NCBI RefSeq assembly: GCF_026914265.1
Contig: NC_069134.1
Coordinates: 66,040,094-66,104,093 of the forward strand
Length of the DNA: 64,000 nucleotides
Direction: 5' to 3'
Origin: Mya arenaria
Taxonomy: Eukaryota; Mollusca; Bivalvia; Myida; Myidae
The notes under the pieces are model-generated. The model saw only the letters and a program-made list of their open reading frames with translations. It was not told the DNA's origin and searched no databases. This document shows positions 388-57,000 of the stretch, piece by piece. How positions within the stretch are numbered: position 1 is the first letter of the stretch; each line of letters opens with the position of its first letter. The position numbers and the translations under genes are program-made.

Positions 388-3300
388 GGCTTATTCGTCA
401 AGGACACCGTGCTCTCAATGACATATGCGTCCAAAGCCGTATTGTTATGTCAGTCAGCGTTATCATCCCTCATTCAGGAGCTGACGACTGACATCACGAC
501 CTCTATTGGAGAGCTGAAGGAGGCCGGCGGCTCCGATATCCCCTCCAGGCGACTCCTGGCGCTACGCACCGCAGAGGCCAACCTAAAAATGGTCGACATG
601 GAGATGGCCAACATAACGCTACCCGTCACTAACTTCAAATTACAGGTACGTAATGCCAACTTCAAACTTCAGGTACGTAATGCCAACTTCAAACTTCAGG
701 TACGTAATACCAACTTCATACTTCAGGTACGTAATGCCAACTTCAACCTTCAGGTACGTAATACCAACTTCATACTTTAGGTACGTAATGCCAGCTTCAT
801 AATTCAGGTACGTAATACCAACTTCATACTTCAGGTACGTAATACCAACTTCATACTTCAGGTACGTAATACCAACTTCATACTTCAGGTACGTAATGCC
901 AACTTCAAACTTCAGGTACGTAATACCAACTTCATACTTTAGGTACGTAATACCAACTTCATACTTCAGGTACGTAATACCAACTTCAAACTTCAGGTAC
1001 GTAATACCAACTTCATACTTCAGGTACGTAATACCAACTTCATACTTTAGGTACGTAATACCAACTTCATACTTCAGGTACGTAATACCAACTTCATACT
1101 TCAGGTACGTAATGCCAACTTCAAACTTTAGGTACGTAATGCCAACTTCAAACTTCAGGTAAGTAATACCAACTTCATAATTCAGGTACGTGATGCCAAC
1201 TTCAAACTTCAGGTACGTAATACCAACTTCATACTTCAGGTACGTAATGCCAACTTCAAACTTCAGGTAAGTAATGTCAACTTCATACTTCAGGTACGTA
1301 ATACCAACTTCATACTTCAGGTTCGTAATGCCAACTTCATACTTCAGGTACGTAATACCAACTTCAAACTTCAGGTACGTAATGCCAACTTCAAACTTCA
1401 GGTAAGTAATGCCAACTTCTAACTTCAGGTACGTAATACCAACTTCATACTTCAGGTACGTAATGCCAACTCCAAACTTCAGGTACGTAATGCCAATTAA
1501 AATCTTCAGGTACGTAATGCCAACTTCATACTGCAATGCGTATTGGGAACTTAAAACTGCAAGTACGTGTTGACGACAGTCGCGAACTTGAAACTGTAGG
1601 CGCGAATTGAAACTATGTACTGCAAATTTAAAGTAGATGCGTATAATATATCCAACGGTCTATTATGGACGTGGATATCGCATCTTTAAACTATAGGATC
1701 GAATTGCCAATGTGCGTATTGCCAACCTCAAACAGCAATTGCATATTGCCAAAGCATATTGCTAATTTCAAACTGCAAAGGTTTTTTTGTCTACTTTCGT
1801 CAAACTGCAAAGGTATTTTGTCTAGGTTCGTATAACAAACATTAAACTGCTAGCGCATGTTGCCCACTGGAAACTGCATGTGCATAGTACCCACTGAAAA
1901 CTGCAAAAACCTTATGCCAACCTTACACTGTCCATATGTTTCCAAACCACTTAAACATGGGATAGTTTCAAGTTTACGGCCAAAATTTAATAAAGCTTGA
2001 TTCAACAACCCACAAGTTTTCTTCAAAGTTTTGAGTATTCCTGCTAGGTCAGCCATCGATCCATAACACGAATATCAATTGCCCATATGGTCAAGGTTTT
2101 GGACACCATCGTGGATTACTTTACCAACATTGGCAGGGGCGTATCTAGACCTAGATTGATGTGCAGGTTCGGTTTGGGGCATGTTCCCCCTCGGAATGCA
2201 ATGTGCACTTAGGTGCGTTTTCCGCTAAGTATTGGAATAATGATAATAATAATACATAAATAGAACATTAAAAGGAAAGACTTGCTAATATTGTTACATG
2301 AAGCATATACCCAGGCCTACAATGCGTACGTGGAGCTACGCCAGTTGTTGAGACTTAAAGAAATACATATGAAAGTAAATACAGAGGAAATGTACTGTAA
2401 TTGTATATGAAAAGGACAGGAAAAAACACATTTGAGTACGTCGGGTAACAAGGAAAGACTACGATATTTAATTTGGTGATACGTAAATAATATTTAAGTA
2501 ATTGATTATCTGCAATAATATTACTCCATTCTGAAGACTATTGATGTAAAAATACATTTCTATACGTACTGGTGAAAGCGCTTTGAAAAAGTACGAATAA
2601 TAGAAAAGAAATATATTTGTATTCCTATTGAGGCATTGGCTCGATGTATTAAAATACCTTTTCATATTTTATTCATTTAAAATGATTGAATCAGCTCTTT
2701 CATTAGTACTAAAGCATTGATCAATCCTCCGTATGAATGCTCTCAATGTCTATTATAAGCAGACTTTTACGGGCATTCAATTGAATTGTGCAGCGATAAT
2801 ATAAACGGATGACAAAATGAAAAAGCCTCATTTTCACAATACCTGTCACCAGCTTTGTTGAATTCAATTGAATGTTATAAAACCTATACGTTGAAATTGA
2901 TATTGACATTGCTTTGCCTCCTTTTGCGATATTCCATTAATATTATCTTCATTTATAAGTTACGGCTTTTATAGTTACAGGTAAAATTGGATGTCGATTT
3001 AACAATTCATAACCTTGCTAAATACTAGTAGACCAGTCGCCAGTTGTCCATCAAACAAATAAGTTGAACAATAGCAATATTATGAAAAAATAATGATAAA
3101 AGCACATGGTTGCATTATCCCAAAGATTAACTGTATTGTTTTTTTTTTTCATTTCTAAGACATTTTTCTTTTTTGATTTTTTTTCTCCTTTAGATGATTA
3201 ATTTCAATTCAATTAAACATTGGACTTTGTGAAACCTTAGTTTAAACCTTAGTATTAAACTGGTTTGAAAATAATTATATGTAAGCTGTCCTTATAGACT

Positions 3301-5606
3301 CTCTCACAATTTATTGGGTCAGAAAAGCAAAAATGTAACTTTGTGTGCAGTGTGAACACTCTGCTTGGATCAACGGTAAGATGTCATAAGATTTCCAGAA
3401 TCAGAGTTATTTTCTTCTTACTGTTTGGAAATATGACAAATACCAAATTTCATGAAAACGTTTGTTCTGTATAGTGTGAGTCAGTCCATTTGAAAAGCTA
3501 ATCAAATTTTGATTAGGACAGATGATAGTTCATGTTCTTGTTTTATTGAAGTACGTACCAACAGGATCCAGTGTAAGTAGTTAGGAGGGCTGATATATAT
3601 AGAGCTGGTGTCAATTAACCGTGTAAAGGCTAAACAATAACACAAACATATTGACTAATCAATGAAATATTAATTTAAGTCCCCTCTACTTTTTATCGAA
3701 TGAAGCCGTGTTTTGTGACAATTAGACGATACTTTTGCGGCCAGTGGTTACACTCAAACGAATATTTAATAATTAATACTTGTCTCATGAAAGATATATA
3801 ACGGTTAATTGACACCAGCTGTATATTTGCATTTCTGCTATCTGCATTTATTTGCATGTTAAGTAATCATTTTAAGACTATATATTCGCACACCAAGAGA
3901 GGGTTAGGGCTGCACTGTTATTCGAGACATTAGTTCTCTGTAGACAGACTAACAAAAATAATAATCTAAAGTTGCACTAATATATATTTACATTAAAATA
4001 TATCATATATGTTGCCTTGCTTTTTAAACCTATTAATTACTCTTATATTATTGAAAAGTTAACATTTAAAGGTTAAGAAGGTATGTCAACAAAAAATGCA
4101 TTCTTTTTAATTTTTTTATATATATTTCTTAGATTAATTCAGATCTCGCTTGAACAAAAACGACGTTTGTACTATGTTTCTTTTAATTGCACAATCGTTA
4201 CTACTCGGCTATCTCCGGCAAGATCGGAACATAATCTTCAAGATCGAAATATAGATTTTTATTTGAATACTTACAAATATGTTCAGATTGCATGTACTTG
4301 CATGTACCACTATTTATTATGTATTTCACTGTTTGCACACGACATTGTTTAAACATAACATAGGAACAATATTACTCTTAAAGCTTTAGAGTTTCCATTT
4401 GTTAAATCTTAATTTCCTTATACTTCAACATTATTTCTGTTGAAGTTTAATAAATGTGTTGACATACGTGATGTTTAGATTACTTCGTGATTTATCTTCA
4501 TGACGTGCCGTTGCTTGCGCCATTCTTTTCTTGCGGCACCATTTTGTTGTAAGTATTTTGCCTTCTGTACAAGCATAGCAAGAGACCCATGCCAGTATTT
4601 TGCGTGAGTTGTTTTATTTTTGCTGGCAATGGACAATGCATGTTATCGCTCTTCAATTCCTAAAATATTTTCAACTGTGATTTAACTCCTTTCCTCGAAA
4701 GATCGCCTAGTTGTCTAGCCATCTTTTTGCTTGGCTTATCGTCATTTGATTGGCTATATGCATGTCGTTCTAAAAGAGTATGGCATGTCTAAAACGACTC
4801 AAGATGACAGAATGTTTGATGATTTAAGACACCATTTCCACCATGAACCCTATATCCACCTGCCAACATTAAAACCAAATAAATTTATGTTCAGAGGGAG
4901 GGGTGCAAGTCAAAAGGTCCCCAACTCCTGTAACGTCAACTCCTGAACTGCCCCCCCCCCCCCCCCCCCAGTTCGTCTTTATATCACTTATATCACTAAT
5001 GTTGCTGATACTTTGATATGTTTAAATGTCGGTTGTGTATCAATATCTTTGCAGGTTTCGCTTTCAAAACAGCTCGCATCAAGTTCATTTTCATTTTTTA
5101 AGTATGTTTGTATTTAGAAAGACGGGTTTTCCATTTTTTCATCGCTGTGGAAATTTGAGCTTTTGTCATTGGGCATCACATGTTATGTTGGTCATCTTTT
5201 CTGTATCGAGCGTCTCAATTATATCGGAATCACTCGCCCATAGTCGTGGCTAGATTCATTTCAATTTTCTTTTTTCATCAGCCAAGTTCTAATCACTTTT
5301 GATTTAATTCCAAGTTATCTTCAAATAGCTCGTTTGGTTTACATTCGTTTATGAAATGAAATTGTCCACATCGTTCGGAACGTCGATAGAATCGTCAGAA
5401 TCATTGGACACAAATCGTTGTAGAGAAAGATAATCTTGCATGAGGGCTTCCATTTACTCCAGTATCGTCATACTTCTCCATTATCTCAATATCATCACTG
5501 ACTTCACTTACATCTTCATTTTCGAGCGCAGTACCTTTCTCCTTGTCAACATTATCACTTCCAAGTAATCCATTCTTGCACTCCGAGTATTCTCTTTAGT
5601 CTCTTC

Positions 5607-5682
<76 letters not shown>

Positions 5683-7565
5683 ACATCGGTTGAACTTCAA
5701 TTTCTCTGACGGCATGGAAATATTGACCGTTTTATTTGATAACTTGTTTTAAAATACTTATATATTAGGCATACTGAGTCTAGTATATCTTGAACTTCAA
5801 GAACAGCCGTGTATATCTATATGGTGTGGGTGTGTGACAGTATTTTTTAAGCAAGAGCAAATTGCAGACTGTTAATTTCTGCCTAGTTCGCTAAAAATCC
5901 ATGCCATTGTTTCTCAAGGGACTTATTCACAGATGTAATGTCGGCGACTTTTATTTTCAAACTTTGTTCAAATTGAAAAATATCACAAAGCTACGTGATT
6001 GCACACCAAATTGCAGCAGACAGTTCTAGACATATGTATCTATTTTATTATTATTTTGTAAAATTCAACACGAAGTCACATCAGACAGTTACAGACATAT
6101 ATTTATCTTAACAGTATTTTCGGTAAATTAAATCTATTTTCAATTGGGTTACTAGCACTTTCCGGCAAAATTCAGCATTTTCTTTAAAAAAACAAACAAA
6201 CATAATTATACGAACAAAAAAGATCATACTTAAAATATAACCCAATTGTCTGATGACGAAATGCTACAAGTTGTTTTATCTAATTACTCATATAAATCAA
6301 TTTATTTTAATGTTCGGTCAATTATATAGTGAGAAAGTTCTTTTTAAATGAGCCCATTATAGGTTGATGTTAAAAACATATTAGCCTTATAAATGGGGGT
6401 ATCAATTAATAGCTACGTGGCCACAAAACCCCCAACTAAAAAGCGCCAAAGTTTTTCTTATATTTCTTATCTGTACACAAATCAAGTTTTGTTTTGTTTT
6501 GATCATTATTTAGGGATCTAGCAAGTGTAACCTACTTTGCCCCTTAAAAGTGGTGCGTCTTCCATCTAATCCTTATTTATTCTACAGGTTAGCGCTAAGA
6601 TGGAAGCGTGCATGGTGATGTTGAAAGACGCCGTAGACGTCGTCACGGACGAGGGCAGCTTTGAGGTTCCGCCCTTGCCACCGCCCGTCGTCACTATCCC
6701 GCAGACACCAAAGAAGTCACCCGCGCATGCGCGAACAAGACGTCCGCCGACGGAAGTGTGTGCCGTCAAAGTGAGCTCGTTCGGGGTCCGCATGCATAAT
6801 GACAAAAGTCCGTGTGACATAACTGGATCTACGATAATGCCGGACGGACGCCTGGTGCTGGTGGATTATAACAACAAGAAACTGAAGGTTCTTGATATTG
6901 ATTATAAGCTAATTTCTGATTTCAAAACGGACGGCGCCTCGTTTGACGCTACCACCATCCACAATAGCCAAGTGGCTGTCACTGTACCGAAAGAAAAGAA
7001 GATTCATTTCCTGAGTTTACAAGATGGCATGCGAGTATCGGACAGTATTCAAACTAGATTAGAATGCTGGGGGATCGATTCATTAGACGACAAGTTGGTG
7101 GTAGTAACAAACAGCGATGATCATATGATTTTGTTTCTTAATAGAAAAGGTACGGAACTTATTTCTTGTAGTTTGGGGTCCCAGGATCCAAACATGAAAT
7201 GGCCGATTTCTGTTTGCGTGGAATCCAAGGACAGGATATTCGTGTCCTGTCAAGGCGAGGGTGACTCGGATGATATAAATGGCTGCCTGGTTGTGATCGA
7301 CTCGGCCGCTCAGGTGCGCAGCATGTATATGGACCCGGGCCTCCGGAAACCGACCAGCTGCACGCGCGACGACGATGGAAACATCTTCATCTGCGGGCTG
7401 ACGTCAGCAAACGTGCACTTGATCCAAAAGACGGGTGACCGCCTCGGTCAGGTGATTTCCGGTCTCAGCAAGCCGATCAACGTCAAGTTTTGTGCGGAAA
7501 CCGGAAGTCTGCTGCTGATGGAGCGGTTCTGCAATGATGTGGCAGTTTATCAGCTGCAGGAATGA
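388..7565 (+). CDS. TRIM-like protein, 3' portion (coiled coil + beta-propeller), two exons visible
   Basis: Exon A runs from an uncertain acceptor at about 388-403 to 645 and exon B from 6588 to the TGA at 7563-7565. The junction is phase 0: exon A ends ..NFKLQ and exon B begins VSAKMEACMVMLKDAVD after a 'ttctacag' acceptor. Exon A (ASKAVLLCQSALSSLIQEL...) reads like the helical coiled-coil segment of molluscan TRIM proteins. Exon B has a proline-rich linker (PPLPPPVVTIPQTP) and then repeated strand patterns typical of an NHL/six-bladed propeller, such as PDGRLVLVDYNNKKLKVLD and DDGNIFICGL. RING and B-box would lie outside the window. The family usually acts as cytoplasmic E3 ligases or scaffolds; that role is inferred. 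The oddity is the intron, which starts with about 33 tandem copies of the exon-A/donor junction. AATAAA at 8227 is a possible poly(A) signal. Confidence 0.75.
630..1532 (+). repeat. 27-bp tandem array of an exon-end/5' splice-site unit (about 33 copies)
   Basis: The unit is roughly 'gtacgtaatnccaacttc' followed by 'anacttcag'. Copy zero is the end of exon A itself (..AACTTCAAATTACAG), and every following unit repeats this exon end joined to a GTACGT donor. At least three units (donor GT near 1159, 1267 and 1402) carry the fully consensus CAG|GTAAGT. The reading frame of exon A stays open through about five units (VRNxNFxLQ repeated) until a TAG at 778-780. The array sits entirely at the 5' edge of the intron. 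Past about 1532 only decayed, irregular relatives ('aactgcaa...') are visible to about 1920. Confidence 0.93.
4950..4969. repeat. Poly-C homopolymer
   Basis: An uninterrupted run of about 20 cytosines inside the TRIM-like intron. Its length is likely to be unreliable in an assembly. Confidence 0.9.
5607..5683. repeat. (ATC)n microsatellite
   Basis: An almost perfect trinucleotide run of about 25 units in the TRIM-like intron, interrupted once near its end ('caacatcgg'). No coding context supports it as protein. Confidence 0.93.
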
Positions 7566-8137
7566 CTAACAGAGGAGGCCAGAACCAGGCTGTAGAGTTC
7601 TTAGGACACTTTGGCATTTTGCGCATAAGTGTGAAGGTAGAAAGTATGCAGGAAGCAGATTGGAAAGTGGTATGTGAAAAATATCAGTATGAGTAATGAA
7701 ATACGGTATAGCGGTATTATTTTGAAAACATGACGGTACTACCTGTGTCTGATGAAACGTGTTTCGAAATCAGATACATAAAAGAGAACAAGTCCAGTAT
7801 TGTAGGCTTGTCATATGTTAAAGGTTAGTCTATTTAAAATTTAAATAGACAGTTTGTGAAAAACCTTTATAAGACACACCAGCAGCAGTTCTTTAGAAAA
7901 AAATGTGTTCTTGTACGTGTAGTATATATACACAAAGGTTCGCAACAGAACAAGATGATTAGAAAAAAATTCAGGAGTGTTTTCATTGAAGAATTAGTGT
8001 ATGAAGCGCCAAATCTACATACACTGAAATATTTTGAGAGTTCTTCTAAGGAATTAGTATTATGATTAGATAGACAGTGTGTGATCGTATAGGTTTGTTC
8101 GAGATTTAACATTTACTTTAAAAGTTAAAATGTTGAA

Positions 8138-8208
8138 AGTTGGGGAGGGGGGAGGAGGGGAGGAGGGGAGGAGGGGAGGGGGGGGGGAGGAGGGGAGGAG
8201 GGGAGGGG
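8138..8208 (+). repeat. G-rich purine tract, G-quadruplex prone
   Basis: Serial GGGG/GGA blocks ('gggaggaggggaggagggg') run for about 70 bp on the plus strand, just before the AATAAA at 8227. The density of G runs fits intramolecular G-quadruplex formation. In the transcript of the TRIM-like gene it would lie in the 3' UTR upstream of the putative poly(A) signal. Confidence 0.8.
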
Positions 8209-8226
8209 TATAAGAAATATTTTATA

Positions 8227-8232
8227 AATAAA
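8227..8232 (+). terminator. Candidate poly(A) signal of the TRIM-like gene
   Basis: AATAAA about 660 bp after the stop codon, the first good hexamer noticed on this strand. The position suits a 3' UTR end but nothing else confirms it. Confidence 0.35.
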
Positions 8233-10235
8233 ACATAAAAACTATAAAAAGCATTAATATCCTTCATGTATGGAAGCGTATCGGCAAACCAGTTTCCCAA
8301 ACCTTGATCTAACAAAGACATGTTATTTCTATGGAAGCCTATAACGTATATAATGATTATTTAGTCACCTGTTTGACGTAGACTAAAGGAGTTATAACAT
8401 GGCCTTTTGTCTAAATCATGTCAACTTGTTCACTTTTTGACTAATTATCATCGTATCTATTATAATAAGTGTATCATAGCTTTTTAAATGGATACAGTGA
8501 AAACCAAGTTTTTCTAATAAGGTCAAAAATAGTTTTGTTTCAGAGTACCCGACTGGATATGTTCTTTTACCAACCAACCGAATTATTTCCGAATCGAAAC
8601 ACATCAACAAAAAACAAACCAAAGGCCCATGAGGGCCTATGCTCTAGGGGTTGGCATTGCTTGTTTGGTCATTTTGGCTAGTAAAATTTCAAAATTTTAG
8701 GATTGCACGACAACAATATTTGAAAATGCCAGTGCACAGTAAGATAAGTCCGGACGTCACGCTTATCGGTGCACTGACCAAATGTTTACAGACACAGTTG
8801 CACCGCATTTCAAAGATATTCAATGTCACAATTTGCACATCTTTCCTTGGATAATTTAATAACAACACTGAAAAACAACGGTTTCAAGGCAATCAAACAT
8901 AGTATTTATTTGTCTGTTTAAACAGCAGCAGCGTCAATGACGTCAAATCTTTGAGCTGTGTCACATACTGTAGAGCATTTACCACATTCATGCCAGTTGA
9001 CCAATCAAAAGCGTCGTTTTTGTACATATTAAGGTACTCTGAAGATGTTTCATTCATTCTAATATTTTTATGAATGCAACTGAAAGAATATGCGTTCATC
9101 GAAGGAATTGCAATAAGAGTGTGAATGTTTATGTTCGCCAGATTTGTAACCTCTATAATGGAAGTAAACCTAAAGTGGACCACTGCATTTGACCGTTAAT
9201 GTCACCGATTATGAATGGCTCCTCCAAAATAGTGATTGTTCTCAAGTGAGATAAAAAGAGTCCAGCAAGTTCAACATGTTCCTGGACGTTCTTTCAAGAC
9301 AACAAGAAAACATGTTGCAGTTTTGAGATTTAATCTGATCCAAATATCTGTATGTTATATGTATTTGTTTATATAATACACAATGAATATAGTCGCAGAG
9401 AGGTATCAGATTCAATAAAGTCAAGAACATATGTTGCAGGTTTCATATTTAATCACATCAAAACATCCATTCTTAATATCAGTAAGGTTTCAAGAATTAC
9501 CACAGTGAATAAAGTCGCATATAATGAAATTAATTGATTAACTAGAATTCCGCTAATCGGATCTGTCGTCTGTCAACATGACCTTGACCTACTGACCCCA
9601 AAACCAATAAGGCCTATTTACTGACCATGACCAGCCATCAATGTGCATAAAAATTTTAAAGATATGAAACGAAAGTGTGATGATGAAAGTGTGATGATGA
9701 CGATGACAATGCCGAAGACAACAACTGTTGCAGATTCTACAATCAGATTATGTTTTATATCCTGATTTTCTTGCACAATTGAGTATTCTTGGTCGATCTG
9801 TTGGTTAAAATTGCTAAGCGTAGTTCATAATTAATAGTAAGAGCAAAATTGTGTTTCGTATTTATCAGATCACATTAATATACATTGAACACACGCACAA
9901 ACTGAAAAACAAAACATCAACCATGACGCCAGCGACACAATTAATGAAGAACTAATTTGATTTTCAATTCAATCAACTGCAAAGGCAAACAGGATTTTGA
10001 CGCTCTAAACATGACAATTCAATACAAACAATTTCAACAATGCATTAAAAAAAAACAAGAGAACAACAGAAGCAACAATGCTCGTCCGTTGTTTTTCCTT
10101 ATGTCGAAGGGGCACAAATTTACAGTTATCAAGGCCAGAGTTATGCGCCTTGTTATCCATATATGAACGTATTGTCTCTGGCAATATGTGTAGAAAGTTG
10201 CTTTATTTCTTCAACTGTTTAATAGTTATGGCCAA

Positions 10236-10625
10236 CAGGGCTTCCATTCAGAATTTGAAAGTAAATTATGAACTTCCTGTCCATCATTATTGTAAGGTTT
10301 AAACTGAAATGTGGAAGTTTCTTGAATACAATACTTTTTTCCACTATTTTTCAAATTGTTTGTTAAAAATAAAACTATTTGCAACTATAACTTGCCAAAT
10401 TCACAGATTTATATTGAAATAATTCATTTTATTTCAAGATTTATTGAAATTGTGACCATAAAAGTAATATTGACAGTTTTGATATTTTGAACTTCCAAGC
10501 TTTCAACTTTGGAAGTTTTCTTCAAAATTATAGAAGTTTTTGTACTTCCAAGGAATCCATTTTAGAAGTTTTAACTCATTTCTAGGGAGTAATATACTTC
10601 CAAACTTCCTTCAACGGCAGCCCTG
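10236..10625. mobile_element. Non-autonomous TIR element, CAGGGCTTCC ends (copy 1)
   Basis: About 390 bp, beginning CAGGGCTTCCATT and ending near-inverted in ..GGCAGCCCTG, with a second copy at 50952-51349 of matching internal sequence ('gaacttcctgt', 'gggagtaatat', 'cttccaaacttcctt'). CAGGG termini suggest the hAT superfamily. The flanks share GGCCAA, a possible imperfect target-site duplication. There is no coding capacity. Confidence 0.7.
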
Positions 10626-11256
10626 GGCCAAGGTTTTAGAAAAATGACACCAACTACTATACCAATAACAACACGCGGCTATGACAATAACGCAACCGTT
10701 TTTCTTAAATAAATCCGGATGAAACAAAGATGAAAATAATACATAACAGGTAGTATACATCTTGGCGTATGTGCATAGTGAACATATTGAATGAACTATC
10801 ACAGTATGCAAACAAACGAGACAAGAGCACCACAAATACTTGTAAACAACACATTTTTATGCAATTTTTTTTGTAACATGAAATCCGTTCAGATTTACCA
10901 TATAAATTGAAATTCAGCCGATTTGGATACATCTAAAAATAAAACAACCAATGAAAATCCACCTTCCATATATTCAGTGTTATCATCTGATCTAGTATGT
11001 GCAAATTCCAGAGGATTATCCCTCGGCCCAGGGATATGGAATGTATGCAAAACATTTGGTTCTACAGCATGTGAAGCGCACAATACTAGTCTTGGATCAG
11101 ATTATCCATACATTTTGTTAATTGCTGTTGATATTTTGTGGAAAGCAGTACTTTGCAGAACATACTATGGTAACAACAACACTAATACTACAGTGTCCTG
11201 AAGTCACAAATGACTATATAAACTTTAACAATAGACAAGATTTCACTCCAAGCATT

Positions 11257-14200
11257 TCAGAATGCCCTGGTTTTTGGTAGCCATACTCCAACAGTAATGT
11301 CAGCCCCGGCACTCGCCAAAACACCATTATTGTAGCTGATCTGCGAACAGACAAAACACTTTCATTAACACTTGAACCAAATGATCATACAGTTTACATT
11401 GCAAACAAGACTTAATTATTAGTTGGCTGTTGAGATCAATCGAGATATAATGCCCAGTAACAATGTAGCCAAGATTTGTTACGATAAGATCAAATCACTT
11501 TTCAAGTATGAGCCAATATAAGTTTCCATTAAAATTAAAATTTAAAGTAAGTTTTAGGTATTTTAACATTGATGGGAAAACATTCATAAGTGTGTAATGT
11601 TATCTTGTGAAATTAATGTTAAGATCTATAAAATTCATGCCTCATTAGTTTAAACTTATTTTACAATGATTGTGGATTTTTTCTGTCATGCCTGAAGTTT
11701 TTGCATATCCTTGCCGTGGTATTATGCAATAGCAATAACAAAACCTCTGCTTTATTCTTAAAGAAAAAACAGACTAAATAGCTGGTAGAATAAACCCGAC
11801 ATTCCAACTTACCCCTGCCACTTCCCCGGAATGTGCATTGAGGGTAGTGATGACGTCTGCATCCAGACATGGCTCTATGACCTTGACCTTGGAGTCAGAA
11901 CAGCACGTGAACACGCCCCCATCTGTGTGGATCAATCCCGTCAGTTTGCCGGAGTGACCTACATCTATGGTCTGAAAAATATTAAATATAATTTTTAACA
12001 TATTATTATAAAAATATATATCAATGAATAAGAATAATATTATACAAATATAATAAAGTTTTGAATGAAAGTTTAAAAACAAGTTAAAATCAGTGCTAAT
12101 TAGGTTTTATTCAAAACTTATTATGATACAGAACTACACTTTAAAATAGTAGTTCAATCCCATGCAATTATTTGTTTGGAGTCAATAAAGGGGAATAAAT
12201 CAACAATTATCAAAGAAATACTTATGGGCATTGCTACAAACGTGAGTATTGTCTTGGTAACATTTGTACCCAGTTTCATGTGAATAAAGCCATCGTCAAG
12301 GTAAGAACAATGACAATACAAAGGCTATAAAAAACAAATAATATATAAACTTCTTTTTTGGTAACAACACTTAAATTATTAATAAGTTTCATGATCATAC
12401 AGTCAGTTGAAATTAGACGTTTGTATGAACAAGCCCGAATTCTATTCTTATTTTTTTTTTGAAAAGCCCTGCTATTTTAAATCGAGAATTTGAGCAAGCC
12501 CAGAAAACATTTTAACAGTGTAGGGATTGGTGGCTAGTGCTAATCCCGACCACTGATAAAATGTGCTACAGAGTTAATTCATGCATATAAACCATAGCGC
12601 AATACATGTTTGTTAGGCCAAATAAAAAAATAGGTGCCTTTCAGGTAACGCTGCCAAAAAAAAATAGGGTAGGTAGGTTAGAATATTTATTTCATTTTTT
12701 TTTTTTTTTTTATTTTTTTTATTGATTTCAGTTGACTCAGACTGTAACAATTAAACTAGTATTTAATTAAAGACATCAATTTTCAGGGTTTTCAGCAGTT
12801 TTTTAACATATTCCGTGCTTCAAAGGAAACGTTCTTTATATGTCTGGTTAAATACTTTGACAATGATGGTTGGATTTCAACTAAGTTATGGTACACCACT
12901 CTGCTATTAATAAAGACTTTCTAGGAACGGTTTTACTTTTCTTTATGCACCCTTTGGCTCTCAATCACCCTCTGTAGTATGCTAACCTGCCTGTTACACA
13001 ATTACATGGAGAGTGGGACAGCAAATTTACCATGTAAGCCATCAGCCAAGGAAACCTCAATGCTGTCAAGAGGACCTGGGGGTTCAGGTTTGAAGAACAA
13101 GTAACATGCAGGTTTTATTGCCAAAATTGCACACTTAAGTCTGACATATTAATCTGAAAGTCAGTATCTGACACATTTGTATCTGACAAGAAAATATAGT
13201 GCAAGAATTGAAATTATACCTGCCACACAAGCACAAACTAAATCACTTTTTTTTTTCAGGGAAAAATAGGTTAGGGTCGGCGGGAAAAAATAGGGTAGGT
13301 CGGGTAACCTGAAATGGACCTATTTTTTTATTTGGCCTTACCTGAATGTTATTCTCATCAAAGAGAGCATCTCTGGCATCGAGCACACGCAGGTTTCCCT
13401 GTTTATCTCCGACCCATAGCTGGCCACCACCATAACTTAGGCTTAACACCATACTCTCCATCTGGTCACAAAAATATTCATATGAATTGACACTTGTTTG
13501 ATAAAAAGTCTTTATATCATAAATGATGTCGCAATTATGAAATAATTTCATAATCTATATTTCTGACATAAAAGTAGAAAAATGAAAAAATGCATGCTTT
13601 AAGTATCTATTGCAAGTAAATACATGTAATATCCTCTGCTTATAAAGTAAAACTACAATGTCAATTTGTGAAAACACATGATTTAAAGATCTATCTGTCT
13701 GCAGTGAAAAAAATACTTATTCCAAAATACTACAATGCCAAAACTTAATTCAACACTAACGGTTATTCCAGTTAAACATATAACCCACAGGGGGAAGGCA
13801 ATTATTTAAATAGCATATAGGTGGGTGTCTTTTTTCTCTAATTTGGACCCCACAAGGGTAAATTTGCTTCTGAAGGGGGGTGGTATATTTTAAAAGCGCT
13901 TTCCCCCAGGGGTTATATGTTTGAAATGAATAGCCCTAAGTCAAAACAATATTATTTTGAGAATTAATAATTTGGCAACAATGCTTCAAACCTAAAAAAA
14001 AACCCGATACCTTAATCTGTTTATACTTTTTCCCCGCAGTTCTGTCATATATAGAGATGACCTTGTCTTCACTGCCTGAGATAATGTACTTATCATCCCC
14101 AGTGACACACAGAAGAGGATGGGTGTGGTAGCACTTTCGCATTGGTTCGTCCGGGCTTCGAGGATCAAACATGTGGAGACGCTTGTCGAAACCCCCAGCG

Positions 14201-19920: not shown

Positions 19921-47116
<27,196 letters not shown>

Positions 47117-48045
47117 TGTAAACTTATTAGTCATATTCATAGAATTTTATTAGTCGTTGTATTGTGATAAGTATAAACTGATCAACTTTCTTAGTATTTG
47201 ATTGAGTTGATAAATATGAAGGTTCAAAGAAATAACAATAGACTAAGACTTGTTTCTAGTCTGAAATTGTATGTATAAATTTTTGATAAATATTATTAAG
47301 AACAGAGATAAGAAAAGCATGCTATGAAATGAGCTAGAAATATGGCCTCATCTTGACATTTTTTTTATTGCTCTTTTATGTTTTGAATTGAAAGTTAAAG
47401 ATATTTCTCTATAGTAGGAATTGCTGTGTGGGGCGTTGTCCACACGACACTTTCATTTCCAATCGATAACTTGTGAATGACAATGGTTATGGCTTACAGG
47501 TGACATATCCTATTTGCATAATTCTAGTTATAATTTAAAGATGACATAGTAGATAATTTTTTACAATATCAATCTTCAGAGAGAACTGGTTCAAAAAGTT
47601 GAAAAAATATATATCAAATTATTTTATTAAAAAATGAGTTATTCAAATGGTAATATTAACTTCTCTTTTTTCATAATTTACAATTTGCTGAAAGAAGATC
47701 TCTATGCCATGAGAAGTGTACATGTCCCAGAAACTCGGATCAGGATTCTTGTATTTAAGTCATTTTATTTACATGAAGTTTTTAGGCTATTTTGTGTGAT
47801 CATTTCCGATGCTCATTTTGACGTCCGCTCAATGGCAGATGTGCAATATTTAAGCATTTTTAAATTTCTTTTGTCTGAACATAGTCAGTTTAACTCAGTT
47901 ATATATTTATATATATATATTCTGTTTATTTTTATAATATTTTATACTCTGTAGGTAAATTAATTCCACAGCTTGAATGTCATAGAATGATCCTTTGGAC
48001 AAACAAAAAATGTTGCACTGTATCTATTTTGAATTTCAATAGGTT

Positions 48046-48051
48046 AAATAA
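48046..48051 (+). terminator. TTC39: Candidate poly(A) signal of TTC39
   Basis: AATAAA 930 bp after the stop codon. Other hexamers further on (for example near 48970) are equally possible. Confidence 0.25.
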
Positions 48052-48079
48052 AAAATTATAAAGCATTTAAAAATATGAG

Positions 48080-48150
48080 AGTGGAGTAGTGGTTAAGGTG
48101 TCTGCCTCTGTCCCAGGAGGTCTATGGTTCAAGCCCAGGAGTTCAAGCAT
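48080..48150 (+). mobile_element. tRNA-derived SINE fragment
   Basis: 'tggagtagtggttaaggtgt' resembles an A box and 'ggttcaagcccagg' a B box, followed by a C-rich run. It lies in the TTC39 downstream region. Confidence 0.5.
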
Positions 48151-49427
48151 TTGAGCCCCCCCCCCCACCCCCATCCAAGGTTCTCATGGTCACCATTTAC
48201 TAGTTTCTACCAAGAAAGCAGAAAACCTCCTCAACTTTGATTCATATGAGCTAACATCTGTCCCACAATTAAGCTACATTCAAGTGCTTTCTGTGATAGG
48301 AAATATGTCAATCATTATCAGATGAAAATTGAGATAAACCTTTTAATTGATAAAGATCAATACACAGAAGTTGTGTACTGTACACGTTGTTTTTTTAGGG
48401 GGGGGGGGGTCACTCAAAGAAGGCTTAGACTAGGCCTTTAAGAATGTTGTGTATAAAGATTCATACTGATCCTGCGGAAAATATTCTAATTATTTCATTA
48501 ATATAAAAAAAAATGTGACTGTTGAAAACCAAACTTGCCATTAAAAACATGCTGTAGCTTACCGTACTGGGTACCTGGCAGAATAACACTATGTGTACAA
48601 AAATATGTTCATTTTTTATATAGTATTCATTATTTCATCACATTTTTTTTCTTTTCTTTTTTTTATATTTTCAATTCATTATGAATTAGAATGTGACATT
48701 TTTGGAAAAAAACCCACATCATTATGTGCTCAATGTATTTAGTTTTTAATGTATTTTAATAAGATATCACAGTATTTTATATGCTGCATAATGGATGTGA
48801 ATTGTTGGAAATCATGATGATTGTCATGTGGTCTAAATTATAATCAAGGGAAATAACCCAACTCAATTTGTCAATATAAATTGACATGATTTGCTTCCCT
48901 TGATAAAAATTGGCAATACTAAAATAAATAGGGCCTACCTAGCACAGTGCTATATAAGCTGTTATATTTAATAAAGTATGGGGTAATAATTCATTTCATA
49001 TCTTACTTCAGATTATCCAGCTATTATACCAGTTGTTTGCTTAAAAGGCTAAGAATTCTTTATCACTGAAGTCTAATTCTTAATTGTGGCCATCTTTTCA
49101 ACGAGTGTACAACAAAATATTGTTAAAGAATTTCAGTTAAATGTGAAGCGAGTGTTTCAAACTAAATTGAAAGATTTACTTGCAAAATCATATCAATAAT
49201 ACCTTAACTTAACAACCAAGTGTTTCGAGGGTGACTTAGCATGAGTAAATGCAACTTTCATCATGATTGTAAAACAAAAAAAGTCTAATATAGCTACTCA
49301 GCCATTTGATTGTGAGATACTCTTGTTGAGAAGGTGGCTGGCCCTAATTATGTTTTGTTAAATCAAAAACTAAACTACTTGGTTAATCAAAATTGAAACA
49401 TGAATTGTTTTAGGATTAAAGATATCC

Positions 49428-49829
49428 CAGTGCTCCAGCCAGGATTTGAAAAGGGCAGGGTGCTAGGTCAGAAAGGGCACATTCATGCGCTTTGAATGAG
49501 CCTTAATGGGGCTCTTGCAAGGGCCAATGTTCAATTTATATTGAGCATGTGTTGTAGCTACTTTTAATAACAATAGTTTGTTATGAATACCTTAGCTGTT
49601 ATTTTTACTTAAGTGTCAAAATTGTGTACATTTATCATTTTTATACTAATTTCTAAAAATTGACTTGACAGTACATGTATGTCCAATAAATATCAAATAT
49701 AGTTCATTATCAGCAAAGAGGGCTCTGTCAAACAAAAAGGCTCAGCAGAGCATAGTGAAAATGCAGCAGGGTGACAAAAAAGGGTAGAAGGGAGCTCCCC
49801 TCTGCTATTTAGGCTTAGCCGGAGCACTG
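49428..49829. mobile_element. TIR element, CAGTGCTCC ends
   Basis: About 400 bp, from CAGTGCTCCAGCCAGG to TAGCCGGAGCACTG, an inverted pair of about 14 bp. Flanks share TATCC. The interior has G-rich 'gggcagggtgctaggtcag' and 'gcagcagggtgac' motifs. Probably hAT-like and non-autonomous. Confidence 0.7.
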
Positions 49830-50951
49830 TATCCAAGGAACAGAAATGCGAAATTTCACTTCTGTTTTCAGTGGAAATTAAGAACAAAAAATACTAACTG
49901 CCATGATAACATTATCTGTGATGTATTTTCAGTCATTTATTATACTTTTTTGTGACCAGAGAGTAATACCCTTTCCAATTATACCAACATTACAAGGTGG
50001 CACCAGCCATCAACATTTTACATTTAATTTACAATTGTATTTCCAAATGGCCTAATAAAATGGAGGGCTAATATTTGAACATGGGATATCTTAATATGTA
50101 AATACAGATTGTAAATTGTCATTCCACATAAGATTGGGAAGAAATGTATTCCATATCTATGTTAATGATTGATAAATAAACTGATTTAGCAATAACATTT
50201 TTAATGTGTCATAATTATTTAGATCATTATTTCTGTATACTTTACACCATTTAAGTTTTTAAGGTTACTGGTATTGTAAGATTGCAAAATTTGAAACAAT
50301 GACGTTTACAATATTTGAGTATTTTTCTCATGTCCTGATTAATACACAAACATCTTCACACTTAAATGCTGCATGAGCTGAATGGTCAGTTACAGTTTTA
50401 GCTTGTCAGTGTTTGCAGAAAATCATCATTTTGCCAAAGCCTTGGTATCGTTGTTGTCATCAGCGTTGTTGTGTTTCCAGAGACACATATCATATGGCAA
50501 TGCCCATAACTCAGACTTTAATAACACCTTGGTATATTGCAAAACAACATACTGGCATTGTCATTCAGTCTGCAGTGCCATTGTCAATGGCTCAATTCAA
50601 AATTTGTCAAAATGATTCACAATTAGTGTCATTTCTCGTACACATAATGTCCATTTTTGTCAATTATTTTTCTGGCCTGTCTGTTATTTTGAAAGGAAGC
50701 CGAGGTATCGTGATTATGTAGCCTTGGTGTCGCCTATACAAGCATGCCCATAGAAAAAAATATGTTCCAAATTATTCAAATGAAACTTAAAACAAATGTT
50801 GCCAGTTGCAACACCATCGTGTATCTAGTCCCACAGCTTAAGCAGTTATTATTATTATTGAGAAGTGCCCCTTTATCATTGAAACCAAAAACAGACAAGC
50901 GCTGATATCCACCTGTGGTGCTCTTGTTTTGTTGATATGCTGTCTGAGTGA

Positions 50952-51349
50952 CAGGGCTTCCATTATGGATTTGGAACTGGAAGTATGAACTTCCTGTTAA
51001 TCAATTTTATTTTATTTCACTGAAATGTGCTTTTTAAGTCTCCTGAATTCAATACCTTTAACTTTTTTTCAACAAGTATGTTAAAAATCAAATGATATGC
51101 AACTTTAACTTGCCAAATTGACAGATTTATATTATAACAATTCATTTTACTTTAATACTGATTAAAATTGTGATCATAAAAGCAATATTGACGAAAGATT
51201 TTGATATTTTAAACTTCCATGAGCTTTCAACTTTGGAAGTTTACTTCAGGATTAATGAAGTTTTTGTACTTCCACAGAATCAATTATGGAAGTTTTAACC
51301 CATATGTAGGGAGTAATATGCTTCCAAACTTCCTTTAACGGAAGCCCTG
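50952..51349. mobile_element. Non-autonomous TIR element, CAGGGCTTCC ends (copy 2)
   Basis: Same family as 10236-10625, with the cleaner termini CAGGGCTTCCATT and AACGGAAGCCCTG. The two copies align along their whole length, which fixes the element at about 390-400 bp. Confidence 0.75.
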
Positions 51350-53129
51350 CGCTGATTTGCTGATGTTGTTAATCAATATTGTTTAATTGTTTATTATGTT
51401 TCACAATGCTGTGATATTTCGTCTGCTTGTTATATCAATTTTGTAATATTATTTTTTTATCATATTTTAATTGTTTCCTTCCCATGGTATACATGAAATA
51501 AATAATTTGTTCATTTGATTGTTTTACCTATCCATATCCAACAGACACTATTTTTTAAGAAGGACAAAGTCTGTACCCTGGTACTAATATCTCTATGATC
51601 AGTGTTATTTTTTAAGTAAAATAAATAATAATAAATATTTAAGTGTCTTTGTCTGTGATAACACCATTATTAACAAAGTGAGAAAAAACACAAGCATTTT
51701 TGTGTTCCCTCCTTTCTTAGAATCCATCATTTAAGATGCTTAAATTTTGCATCATTTGAAAGCATATGAAACCTAGAAAGAATATATGCAAATAATACTC
51801 TGACCAAAATATTTCCAGGAGTTATTGCCCTTGAATATGAATATTTCACCAAAGTAACCTTGTCTGCTCTCCATATTTTATCAAAATTCTACCAAATTTG
51901 GTAAGAATGTTTTACATTTCAAGCATAATTAATGACCAGTCTGACCCTTCCTGAAATTACTTTTATACACTCAAAGTCAAGCGATTCTAATCCAATCTTC
52001 TTTAAGATGATTACCTTGACTTGAGATTATGTGGGCTAAGTTTGATAATCAGCCAGATCACACAATTTGTTTTGGAGCTGAATATGTGAAAAATGACCAT
52101 ATTCACATTGTCAATTTGAACATTTTTTTTTTTATCAAACTTCTTATATGTCAATGGGCCTAATTTCTCCACTATTTTAATTTCCCCACCTCTTTAAACT
52201 TTCAATTATTAATGAAATGGTTAGCATCTTAAATATACCTTGAAAGTATGAAATTAACAACTATACACTGAAGAATATCAAATACCCTTTGTAATTTATT
52301 ATAATAATACCCAACAATTAACAACAACCGTCAGTAAAACATGAAATCACCTATAAATGTTATGATTTATCCCTCTTTGAAAAAATATATTTAAAAGCTT
52401 ATTAATGTATATATTAGTATAATTTTAATAATAATATGTAATCTGTACTCCATCAGTGACTAGTTATTAAAATCCATACAGGAGCACATCTAGTGTGATA
52501 TGACATGTACAATTTTAATCACAATGATAGATGTAGTAAGTGTTCTGTACGGTACCATATTGTCATATTAATAATTATGTGTAATATTGAAATACTGTTT
52601 TATTTCATCCTTTCCTTTGTCTGTAGAAAAAAAAGGTCAATTATATACTAGTAACTCTGTTTAAACAAAAGATTTTATCATATATAATATCACTGTTTCA
52701 CCAATTATAGCCCAATTCACTATGAACGACCCAACAAATATCACATTGCTGAGATAATGATTGAACTCATTTCCAGTTTGATGTCATTTGACTTAAATTT
52801 GGCACAATTTTCTGATCCATTAACAATTCATTATTGATTTTCATATATACTAAGCATGAATGTGTGTATTAAAGATAGTAATATATTTCACATAGCCAAC
52901 ACCGAAAATATAAATATTTCACTAGTTAAATATAACTTTGTGCTCACTAGGTGAAATATATTGCTGTCTTACACTAAAACAAGCAATTACTCTCTATGTA
53001 ATTTTTCCGCACACTTTATATGGTACAACAATCAAGTAGATTACCAGGACAGGTTTTAATGCATTTTTAACATTTTGTTACATAAGTCTAAGAAAATGAC
53101 ATTTAACTAATATATTTGGACATTAAGAT

Positions 53130-53465
53130 TTTGGTTCGGTATTTTAACAACATTTTTTCTAAAAGTGCAATAATAATAAAAATAATAAAAACAAAAAAAA
53201 AACAATAAGGAAAGTAAGTTTTGTAATTTTACAACAATTCTACAAGATCAAAAAAGTGAGGGAAAAATGTTTTGGTCTGGTAATATTACAACATATTTTA
53301 AACAAATCAAAAAACAAGGAAAACAAGAATTTGGTCTGTTAATTTTACAAAACACAATTGTAAAAGAGCAAAAACTGAGGAAAATCATTTTTGGTCTGGA
53401 AATAGTACAACAAAATTCTTAAAGAACAAGAAATAACAAATATAAGAATTTAATTTGGTTAAGCT
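53130..53465. repeat. Decayed tandem repeat, about 75 bp unit
   Basis: Four or five units share 'ttggtctggtaat', 'tacaacaa' and 'aaagagcaaaaa..gagg'. It lies beyond the SLC35B3 stop codon, in the probable 3' flank. Confidence 0.6.
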
Positions 53466-53796
53466 AGCAGCAATTTGCAAAAAAATAATTTTAGGTATAG
53501 TAAAGAATTCACAACTGCCTTTTAAAAGTAAAAGTAAATTCATAAAAACCCTTTTATGTACAGTATGGGAAGTAATATTTCCCTATTAAGGAATTTTCCT
53601 AATAATCATGAATATAAACAACATGTATAAGCAGGCAAAAACATTTCAACAAAACTCCTTATGTACCGAACCCCATAATTCTTCAATCCCCAGTGTCATA
53701 CACACACATTTTCTTAAATATACGCTTGTCATTTTGTTTGAATGCAAACATGATACCTTGGAGATTCTAAAATAAATAACATCAATGAAAAGAGAA

Positions 53797-54093
53797 TATC
53801 ACACTACGGAGCCTGGCAGGCCTGGGCATGCTAGTCCAACAAACTATTTAATATGGAGAAACCACTGTGAAATACTGCTATCCCACTCAGACTTTCACAC
53901 TACAGAGCCTGACAACATTGGGTATGCTAGTCCAACAAGCTATTTAATATGGAGAAACCACTGTGAAATACTGCTATCCCACTCAGACTTTCACACTACA
54001 GAGCCTGACAGACTAGGTATTGTATGTCTAGTTTCTAGTCCAACTAGCTGTTTTACACGCAGCAACCACTGTGCAATACTGGTATCCCAGGAG
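53797..54093 (-). repeat. SLC35B3: Triplicated terminal-exon segment of SLC35B3, including the stop codon
   Basis: The last about 100 bp of the coding sequence (SWDTSIAQWLLRVKQLVGL ... SLSGSVV and TGA at 53991-53993) recurs twice downstream at about 53895-53990 and 53797-53894. Both extra copies share 'gagtgggatagcagtatttc' and 'tgtcaggctctgtagtgtga' or close variants and are more like each other than like the coding copy. They sit in the 3' UTR and both contain ATTAAA (complement of 53943-53948 and 53847-53852), a common variant poly(A) hexamer absent from the coding copy. Confidence 0.85.
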
Positions 54094-57000
54094 GCTCGAT
54101 TTTTGCTGTAAATGTTCAGGTAAATTCCCAGGACCACAAGCAAACCAGACCATAGATACCTGCAGAATAAGGTGGGGACAAGGATTATTAAAAGTGTGCC
54201 TTAATCTATATGCCTGTAACTTTATCAGCTGTGAAACTACTGGTATATCACTGTTGTTTCACATACTGTTAAGTTTTGGTGATGCAATTACTTTACTGAT
54301 ATGTTAATATTAAGGATTTGGTGAAGAAACAATATACTTCCTGGTATGTGAAATGTTTGGTGAAGGAACAAATACTTACTGATATGTGAAAGGTTTGGTG
54401 AAGAAACAATGTGCATGTACTTACTGATATGTAAAAGGTTTGGTGAAGAAACAATGTACTTACTGATATGTAAAAGGTTTGGTGAAGAAACAATGTACTT
54501 ACTGATATGTGAAATGTTTGGTGAAGAAACAATGTACTTATTGATATGTAAAAGGTTTGGTGAAGAAACAATGTACTTACTGATATGTGAAAGGTTTGGT
54601 GAAGAAACAATGTACATGTACTTACTGATATGTGAAAGGTTTGGTGAAGAAACAATGTACATGTACTTACTGATATGTGAAAGGTTTGGTGAAGAAACAA
54701 TGTACTTACTGATATGTGAAATGTTTGGTGAAGAAACAATGTACATGTAATTACTGATATGTGAAAGGTTTGGTGAAGAAACAATGTACATGTACTTACT
54801 GATATGTGAAAGGTTTGGTGAAGAAACAATGTACATGTACTTACTGATATGTGAAATGTTTGGTGAAGAAACAATGTACTTACTGATATGTGAAATGTTT
54901 GGTGAAGAAACAATGTACATGTACTTACTGATATGTGAAAGGTTTGGTGAAGAAACAATTTACATGTACTTACTGATATGTGAAAGGTTTGGTGAAGAAA
55001 CAATGTACATGTACTTACTGATATGTGAAATGTTTGGTGAAGAAACAATGTACTTACTGATATGTGAAATGTTTGGTGAAGAAACAATGTACTTACTGAT
55101 ATGTGAAAGGTTTGGTGAAGAAACAATGTACTTACTGATATGTGAAAGGTTTGGTGAAGAAAAGGAAAGACAGGATAACTGTAACTGCCTTTCTACAAGT
55201 TGTCACTGTAAAAGATAAGTTAAGTTAGAGTTTTAATGGACCGACACTGACCCATTAATGACCCAAGACATAAACAAAGTATGTTAAATAAAGGCCCATT
55301 CAATACAAATATAATTCATCATAGTATAACAATAACAAGTTTTCCTTTTTAATTAAGTACATTAAAAGCATTATTAATTCACATATTTGTGTAAGCAATA
55401 ACGTAAAGATAAAATTTGGGCGTATGATGCATAAAAAATCACATACTTATTGTGTATGCAAAACCTAAAAGTTACAATTATGGTGCCTTTAAATTCACAT
55501 TCTTATTGCGTATTCAATACCTTAATGATACAACTTGGGCTTATAAAGCATTAAAACTCAGAAACTTATTGTGTATGCAAAACCTTAAAAGTTACAATTT
55601 AGGCCTATGATGCATAAAAATTCACGTTCTTATTGTGTATCAAATTCTGAAAGATACAAATACAAACGGGCTCATGAAGCATATAAATTTGAATAATTAT
55701 TTGTAAATTGGATAACCTTTATGATCCATCAAACAAATATACCTGTGACTGCTACAAGGGCGCCGAAGGACCTGACGAGGGTAAGCACAATATACAGGCC
55801 AACATAACCTGTCAGAGAAAACAACGCTCCGTAACCATATGTCTCCAGTGGGTACTGAAAATGTATCAAAATATCAATAGAACATACACATTAACAAGAG
55901 TACGGCAGAGTAGATGCCTACACCAATGCTGGTCATATTTCCACAGTAAATAAAAGGGCATTTTTTTCAAGAAATAAACAGCAAATTAAAGAAATTCCAG
56001 GAAACTTAAAAATGACAATACTTAAAATATATTTGTTGTGGAAAAATATTAAATATTAGCTATTGTTTGTAAACAGACACATTACCCAAAAATTACCCTT
56101 TCTAAAAAACAACAACACCTTTTAACATTAACAATTAAAAGTTTTAAGAACAGACAGGAAGTTCTAAAACACAAAGTACAAATTACTTACTTTTTGACAA
56201 ACTTTAAATGCAGGTACAAGTTCACCAGACAATGTAACTCCAATCAAAATGTACACAAATCCTATTGCATAGGAGTAAAATACCTAAAAGGCAAAAGATT
56301 AAACCATAAAAATGGTGAATATGAACTATAACAGTTACTCATAATTCCTGTAAGTATTGGTAACTACAATTCAAGGGGTAAGTGCGAAAAGGTTCTAAGT
56401 GACATTAAATAAAGAAGAAGATTAAACCTTTTCGCTTTCACCAATCAAATTATTATTCCATTAAGAAGTAATTAACAACAGGATAAAAATCTTCTTTGCA
56501 AATGACAAATTGAGCTACACGTAAAACCTTCTTTTTTTACATTTATCAATCAGTCTATGTAAATATGTTCTAGGATAAATTACAATTGTTTCAAACAAGA
56601 GCTGTCACAGAGACAGCGCGCTCGACTATTTCGCCGCTTTTCAATGTAAGGATTGAAATGTTTTGGCGAAACATGCATAGATCACTGTTAGATTAGATTT
56701 CAATGCAATACATGGTGTGCTGAGATATTAACATAAATGTGGTTTCATGCAAAATTTTAACGAGAATTTCTAAGTCTAAAAATAAAGGGCCATTATTTGC
56801 AAAATACAGTTATCTAACTTAGTTATTCAATTAAGTTGGGTGGTTGAATACCATTGTATAAAGTCTCAATGCAATTATTTGCATTAAATGCAAACTAGAG
56901 TTATCTAACTTGGTTCATTTAGTAGGTTGGATGGTTGAGTAACATTGTATCAAGTATCATTGCAACACCTCAAATAGTTGCTGAGATATTATCCTATGTG

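What the first reader, a model, noticed from the sequence alone, without database searches (positions are those of the whole stretch)
388..55205. Tandem arrays seeded at 5' splice sites in three unrelated genes
Seen directly: the TRIM-like gene (27 bp, about 33 copies), TTC39 exon 9 (about 72 bp, 5 copies) and SLC35B3 exon 8 (39/45 bp, about 21 copies) each have an array whose first copy is the real exon end with its donor. None starts at an acceptor. All unit lengths are multiples of three. The window has only about seven clear tandem arrays, so three starting precisely at donors is hard to call chance. Inference: this genome may have a recurrent process amplifying exon-intron junctions (replication slippage, R-loop-linked repair, or capture of U1-bound nascent RNA), or selection may keep multiple donors, for example to load U1 snRNP and suppress premature polyadenylation. 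I know of no described class of this kind.
Basis: partly seen in the sequence, partly recalled or inferred. Interest (0 to 1): 0.93.

Follow-up and report, generated by a model that had tools for sequence, protein, structure and literature searches.

The report
Exon-edge minisatellites in a clam genome
In the soft-shell clam, short DNA repeats have grown out of the ends of several gene exons into the neighbouring non-coding DNA, carrying rows of copied splice signals; this is a known kind of event that may be unusually common here and is not limited to one type of splice site.

Summary
The window is from Mya arenaria. All three arrays are real, and each grew from a genuine exon-intron junction: TRIM-like (donor 645), TTC39 (35254) and SLC35B3 (55136, minus). 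Copies carry 15, 42 and 27 nt of coding sequence. Donor-specificity fails. A fourth array in the window (96 bp) grew from the last 33 codons and stop codon of SLC35B3, with no donor involved. In 280 kb of the same genome, picked by round coordinates, inspection of the best-scoring array edges gave one more donor array and three acceptor arrays, one with 26 tandem acceptor-like sites. Minisatellites cover 13.7% of that sample. In the window 3 of 31 donors, 0 of 32 acceptors and one stop codon are seeded (nominal P = 0.009 for donors, post hoc). In the sample, array edges carry exon-junction signals above random positions (7 against 2.1 expected, P = 0.006, at one of six thresholds; not significant at the loosest). 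Best reading: ordinary minisatellite births in a repeat-rich genome, tolerated at exon edges because the copy next to the exon body still works. I found no support for selection for many donors. Human precedents exist. A genome-wide count could not be run.

The parts
478..645 (+). TRIM-like (RING/NHL) exon ending ..NITLPVTNFKLQ, donor CAG|GTACGT at 645/646
   Evidence: Alignment to Mya P0123 and relatives; splice contexts
631..1532 (+). 27-bp array, 33 copies, seeded from the exon end (15 nt exon + 12 nt intron); GT kept in 33 of 33 copies; decayed copies run on to about 1930 by eye
3552..3572 (+). 21-nt microexon YVPTGSS of the TRIM-like gene, inside the array-bearing intron
   Evidence: from the P0123 insertion
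6588..7562 (+). Following exon of the TRIM-like gene (VSAK.., NHL)
35143..35254 (+). TTC39 exon, donor CTAG|GTATAA at 35254/35255
35213..35564 (+). 72-bp array (first step 71), 5 copies, 42 nt of each unit exon-derived; copy 4 has AT for GT
55136..55205 (-). SLC35B3 exon 8 (my count) ending ..FFTKPFTYQ, donor TCA|GTAAGT
54312..55162 (-). 39/45-bp array, 21 units; 27 nt of homology on the exon side; 824 of the 976 bp of the intron 54160-55135
53991..54159 (-). SLC35B3 last coding exon (YLWSG..GSVV, stop codon TGA at 53991-53993)
53799..54092 (-). 96-bp array seeded from the last 33 codons plus stop codon of SLC35B3; exon copy vs copy 2 77/101 aligned positions identical (score 84, shuffle maximum 26)
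   Evidence: (TRF 53799-54011); C-terminus shared with other clams

Best explanation
These are exon-edge-anchored minisatellites. Shown: tandem duplications began in a segment that spans the end of an exon; the exon-side copy is the exon end itself, and the other copies lie on the non-coding side (intron, or after the stop codon). Shown: this Mya arenaria genome is rich in minisatellites, and the same anatomy occurs at donors, acceptors and a coding end. Inferred: arrays arise by ordinary slippage or unequal exchange; those overlapping an exon survive only if the copy joined to the exon body keeps working, so the visible cases extend outward from an intact exon. Inferred: splicing uses the copy next to the exon body. 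For equal donors this agrees with published reporter data that the first of two donors is favoured; a stop codon likewise ends translation at its first copy. The distal copies are then nearly neutral and turn over freely.
For: Exon-derived sequence inside units, from exon ends shared with other bivalves for SLC35B3 and the TRIM-like gene and lying inside a Pfam domain for TTC39. The Mya protein models agree with the exon-proximal donor: P0003 and P0007 at SLC35B3, P0123 at the TRIM-like gene; whether RNA supports these models I did not see. A fourth, stop-codon array. Sample: 47 arrays in 280 kb, 13.7% coverage, with one donor and three acceptor cases. Eight units searched against the window and 285 kb hit only their own arrays (its two outside hits lie in L026, which overlaps L013), so no mobile family shows. 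No excess conservation of donor GT. Reporter data PMC6783452, section 7 read in full: with two consensus donors the first is predominantly used; no such order preference for acceptors.
Against: Uniform births do not give as many edge cases as seen: in the window 0.54 donor-plus-stop arrays expected against 4 (P about 0.001, post hoc); in the sample 7 edge hits against 2.1 expected at threshold 17 (P = 0.006). Something beyond neutral placement may act. Acceptor arrays are not explained by the first-donor rule. An 'anchor' idea, that the exon copy keeps re-seeding its neighbours, predicts falling similarity with distance; none was seen (rho 0.05 and -0.11; reversed in TTC39 with four copies). 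No RNA was examined.
Confidence: 0.62

Rival explanations
1. A mutational process favours exon-intron junctions (for example R-loop-linked repair, or slippage at the coding/intron composition step), so junctions are seeded above the genome average, at donors and acceptors alike.
For: Sample: at threshold 20, 5 hits in 86 array edges against 1.1 expected (P = 0.005); at 28, 4 against 0.3 (P = 0.0003). Clustering: three cases in one 10-kb stretch L013 and two in SLC35B3.
Against: Few cases, clustered in few genes. One of the strong hits (L003) is a duplication inside coding sequence, not a junction; L004, L011 and L021:1-609 are unconfirmed. At threshold 12 the excess is not significant (8 against 4.8, P = 0.115), and no threshold was fixed beforehand. 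Longer survival of arrays with one end pinned by selection would look the same.
Confidence: 0.25
2. Donors are specifically amplified or kept (the first reader's view: multiple donors selected for U1 loading or anti-polyadenylation).
For: 3 of 31 donors against 0 of 32 acceptors in the window; GT kept in 33 of 33 TRIM copies.
Against: Three acceptor arrays and one donor array in the sample; a stop-codon array; GT lost in some SLC35B3 and TTC39 copies; the SLC35B3 array sits in an intron of 976 bp.
Confidence: 0.05
3. Alternative donors of the TRIM array are used to add 9-aa repeats, as reported for human IFI6 downstream repeats.
For: The 27-bp unit is in frame and open for the first five copies (NFKLQVRNA..), the first stop coming in copy 6.
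Against: The one Mya model seen (P0123) shows no such repeat; its cluster holds two more members that I did not see. The SLC35B3 array closes the frame at once, and the TTC39 first step is 71 bp.
Confidence: 0.08
4. Assembly artefact.
For: Arrays are hard to assemble.
Against: Copies carry distinct variants and mixed unit lengths; the published Mya chromosome assembly used PacBio long reads (PMC10663159, passages seen). That the window comes from that assembly is inferred, not shown.
Confidence: 0.02

Closest known systems
Human IFI6 (6-16, G1P3) minisatellite with multiple splice donor sites (Turri, Cuin and Porter 1995; title seen in the reference lists of PMC3618361, PMC4526556 and PMC2572611; the paper itself not held)
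   Same: A minisatellite provides a row of donor sites in a transcript.
   Different: In IFI6 two downstream repeat units are said to serve as donors (one sentence in PMC4526556); here use of downstream copies is untested. Here acceptors and a stop codon are seeded too, and cases recur in one genome. Finer anatomy of the IFI6 array is recalled only.
Human internal tandem repeats at exon-intron boundaries in segmental duplications (PMC2812944, abstract and passages)
   Same: Minisatellites (on average 30-bp units) that sit across exon-intron boundaries.
   Different: There they vary between recent paralogs and are said to form novel introns; here they sit in conserved genes, and for the TRIM-like gene the intron seems older than the array.
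Intron gain by tandem duplication (for example PMC4974935, start of abstract in a search listing)
   Same: Tandem duplication that involves exon sequence and splice signals.
   Different: No sign of a new intron at the TRIM-like junction, where relatives stop reading at the same point; not tested for SLC35B3 and TTC39.
Direct repeats near intron borders (PMC11782384, abstract)
   Same: Repeated sequence at or near splice sites.
   Different: Those are single repeats of 4-30 bp flanking the two ends of an intron, read as insertion marks; here one end is repeated head to tail many times.

Membership tests
Minisatellite | Head-to-tail units of roughly 10-100 bp in several copies | tested here: met
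IFI6-type splice-donor minisatellite | First repeat is the authentic exon-intron junction | tested here: met
   (that this defines the IFI6 case is recalled)
IFI6-type splice-donor minisatellite | Further repeats carry donor sites | tested here: met
   GT in 33 of 33 TRIM copies, 19 of 21 SLC35B3 units and 4 of 5 TTC39 copies
IFI6-type splice-donor minisatellite | Downstream repeats are used as donors in mRNA | not testable with these tools
   No RNA data; the protein models seen agree with the first donor
Introner or mobile intron element | Related copies dispersed among genes | tested here: not met
   Eight units searched against the window and 285 kb: hits only in their own arrays; the rest of the genome was not searched
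Intron gain by tandem duplication | Intron absent in relatives | tested here: inconclusive
   TRIM-like relatives P0001 and P0002 end their reading frame 2 and 4 residues after FKLQ, as at an intron; orthologous introns of SLC35B3 and TTC39 were not fetched
   Acceptor arrays at L013:5250-5967, L013:8647-9883 and L021:2252-2533

The most novel reading that the evidence does not exclude
Exon-intron junctions of both kinds, and coding ends, are seeded into minisatellites several times more often than other sites in this clam genome, so that many introns have grown by repeated copying of their own splice sites, leaving rows of dozens of competing donors or acceptors. If so, Mya offers hundreds to thousands of natural experiments on splice-site choice and a route of intron growth that I have not seen counted.
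Probability: 0.3. Interest if true: 0.68.

Novelty: new member of a known kind. Interest (0 to 1): 0.45.

Why it matters
Rows of near-identical donors or acceptors beside one exon are natural tests of how the spliceosome picks one site among equals. If junction seeding is really above chance, it is also a source of intron growth and of new isoforms. If it is not, the lesson is that in a genome where about one base in seven lies in a minisatellite, striking arrays at splice sites are expected somewhere.

Tried and rejected
Tried: RNA folding of the first copies of the three arrays found no unusual structure (z 0.97, -1.02, 0.70). Similarity to the exon copy does not fall with distance, so the 're-seeding anchor' idea got no support. 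Donor conservation above background: not found (its TTC39 table is out of register by one base because the first step is 71, so for TTC39 I use). A pure first-donor selection sieve: adopted for a while, then weakened by the acceptor arrays. Mobile family: no sign. Coverage argument: 335 of 2095 noncoding 40-mers (16%) in the window have a local copy at >=30/40, and 225 of 1305 noncoding 30-mers at >=22/30, so 3 of 31 donors is not high against that baseline; but that baseline counts array interiors, so I rely on the edge null. Paper searches: nine were answered; in the listings that I saw (titles and starts of abstracts, capped) no mollusc paper on junction-anchored arrays stood out. Two papers looked at in passages for this (PMC12783039; PMC3045353) and PMC7931591 did not describe one there.

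Limits. The null uses 14 arrays and 37 exons, some ends approximate and four added by hand; the script did not classify the 96-bp array as stop-type, because its overlap (about 102 bp) exceeds one unit, and I counted it by inspection. One search leaves out edges within 300 bp of a stretch end, which drops the L013:8647-9883 acceptor case; six thresholds were printed and none was fixed beforehand. An earlier form of that null (with antisense shadows still counted) gave 11 hits against 3.4 at threshold 16 and 18 against 7.4 at 10. Exon calls in the sample rest on a codon score trained on 33 exons (leave-one-out AUC 0.916, sensitivity 0.58 at the 5% level) plus splice signals, so cases can be missed; I read by eye only the places printed. 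Pfam backs two of the four cases (PF12248 at E 6.9e-14 after the L013 9877 acceptor; TTC3_9th at E 6e-05, below its curated cut-off, for L021); the L013 2863 donor exon and 5952 acceptor exon had no Pfam match. The exon-derived part at L013 9877 is only 7 nt.
Full report
What the window is. The exon-joined SLC35B3 protein from the window matches a Mya arenaria (soft-shell clam) protein at 100% identity over the full query, on a contig of 69,354,228 bases (lineage). The TRIM-like query matches Mya LOC128213382 isoform X1 at 98%. Genes mapped: a TRIM-like RING/NHL gene (+), an F-box/WD40 gene (-), TTC39 (+) and SLC35B3 (-).

The three arrays. TRF gives 631-1532, 35213-35564 and 54312-55162. In each, the first copy is a true exon end. 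For SLC35B3 the protein runs on in phase from ..FFTKPFTYQ to YLWSG... For the TRIM-like gene I aligned 11 of the 17 hits plus my query: Mya P0123 has ..NFKLQ, a microexon and VSAK; six rows (Dreissena P0124, Mactra P0128 and four unnamed) have FKLQ directly followed by VSAK; P0131 has FRLQ and ISAK, P0135 and P0139 FRLK and ATSK, and P0129 begins near the downstream exon. For TTC39 the exons joined across the donor match PF10300 without a break (E = 1.6e-41). Homology of copies with the exon reaches 15, 42 and 27 nt into coding sequence. As these exon ends are shared with relatives or lie in a conserved domain, the arrays came from the exons and not the reverse.

A fourth array. The 96-bp repeat at 53799-54011 is not in the finding. 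Its upstream neighbour copy is the last 33 codons and the stop codon of SLC35B3: exon copy and copy 2 share 77 of 101 aligned positions, score 84 against a maximum of 26 in 2000 shuffles. A C-terminus of the same kind (..SWD......RQ......V) is present in Mercenaria, Ruditapes, Mactra and Dreissena (13 of the 120 listed hits aligned). No splice donor is involved, so the common factor in the window is the 3' end of a coding exon and not the donor.

Local statistics. Forty-base junction windows have strong local copies at 3 of 31 donors (z 9.2 to 12.0; the next is 1.5) and at 0 of 32 acceptors (best z 2.0). Tiling 33 exons with 30-mers finds local copies at >=22/30 only in the TTC39 exon, SLC35B3 exon 8 and the SLC35B3 terminal exon, plus two exons of the F-box/WD40 gene, which I take to be WD40 repeats matching each other; the TRIM exon part, 15 nt, is too short for that test. 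If the 14 arrays are placed at random without destroying exons, 0.43 donor, 0.11 stop and 0.56 acceptor cases are expected; P(donor >= 3) = 0.0086, P(donor or stop >= 4) = 0.00115, and zero acceptors is unremarkable (0.57). These are nominal, since the window was put forward because of the pattern, and arrays cluster around SLC35B3.

Genome sample. I fetched 28 stretches of 10 kb by round coordinates from the same assembly. TRF finds 47 arrays in 280 kb (0.168 per kb, 13.7% of bases), against 14 in 64 kb (0.219 per kb, 14.6%) in the window. Reading the best-scoring array edges I found: a donor array at L013:2831-3037 (72-74 bp steps); an acceptor array at L013:5250-5967 (25 bp; 26 copies of CAG|ACTA from 5234 to 5952, the last at the exon); an acceptor array at L013:8647-9883 (50 bp), followed by an exon with PF12248 at E = 6.9e-14; and an acceptor array at L021:2252-2533 (about 35 bp, minus strand), followed by an exon with a weak TTC3_9th match (E = 6e-05). 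The first two exons have no Pfam match and rest on codon score and splice signals. So 'never at acceptors' does not hold beyond the window.

Is the edge enrichment real? A simple exon scorer (donor, acceptor and codon scores) applied to 86 real array edges and 3000 random pseudo-edges gives: threshold 12, 8 hits against 4.8 expected (P = 0.115); 15, 8 against 3.5 (P = 0.026); 17, 7 (2 donor-type, 5 acceptor-type) against 2.1 (P = 0.0058); 20, 5 against 1.1 (P = 0.0052); 24, 4 against 0.6 (P = 0.004); 28, 4 against 0.3 (P = 0.0003). Of the seven hits at 17, three are convincing junction cases, one (L003) is a repeat inside coding sequence, and three (L004, L011, L021:1-609) are unconfirmed; the null hits were not inspected either, so only the unfiltered comparison is fair. 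I read this as suggestive, on few and clustered cases.

How it works. Shown: origin from exon ends, and intact exon-side copies. Inferred: births by slippage or unequal exchange; retention because the copy joined to the exon body keeps its role. Published reporter libraries show that of two consensus donors the first is predominantly used, with no order preference for acceptors (PMC6783452, section 7). That suits donor arrays. Acceptor arrays need another rule, probably closeness to the exon body; this was not tested. Donor GT columns are not kept better than many other columns, copies do not grow less like the exon with distance, and units do not recur elsewhere in the 349 kb searched, which speaks against selected donors, exon-driven re-seeding and a mobile family.

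Relation to known cases. The human IFI6 minisatellite 'provides multiple splice donor sites' (title of Turri 1995, seen in citing papers; PMC4526556 says that two downstream repeat units serve as donors). Human tandem repeats at exon-intron boundaries are described in PMC2812944 (abstract and passages). So each array here is a member of a known kind. In the listings of nine paper searches I did not see a count of such arrays in a mollusc genome.

Verdict. Observation largely right, with corrections. Donor-specific amplification and selection for many donors are not supported. Recurrent amplification of exon edges is plausible and directly testable with the full assembly, which I could not search.

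Noticed in passing
L013:2831-3037, 5250-5967, 8647-9883: One 10-kb stretch of the same genome holds three junction-anchored arrays, one at a donor and two at acceptors, the last before an exon with PF12248.
   Followed up: partly
window 3552-3572: A 21-nt microexon (YVPTGSS) in the array-bearing TRIM intron, present in the Mya protein model P0123 and absent from the other rows (which may be an isoform matter).
   Followed up: partly
window 43323-44786: Seven exact AGGTCAAAGGTCA motifs (a DR1-like nuclear-receptor motif; that name is recalled), spaced mostly by the unit length of the 145-bp tandem repeats.
   Followed up: no
window 41383-42613, minus: Two overlapping ORFs in different frames, one with a B-box match below the curated cut-off, inside a TTC39 intron: perhaps an intronless TRIM-like copy.
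   Followed up: no
window 23081-26612: A 28-bp array of about 126 copies between genes; the most GC-rich stretch of the composition profile.
   Followed up: no
window 1532-1930: By eye, decayed 27-bp-like copies continue after the TRIM array, so it was perhaps once longer.
   Followed up: partly
L003:8083-8598: A 198-bp duplication inside coding sequence, in frame, ending at a stop codon.
   Followed up: no
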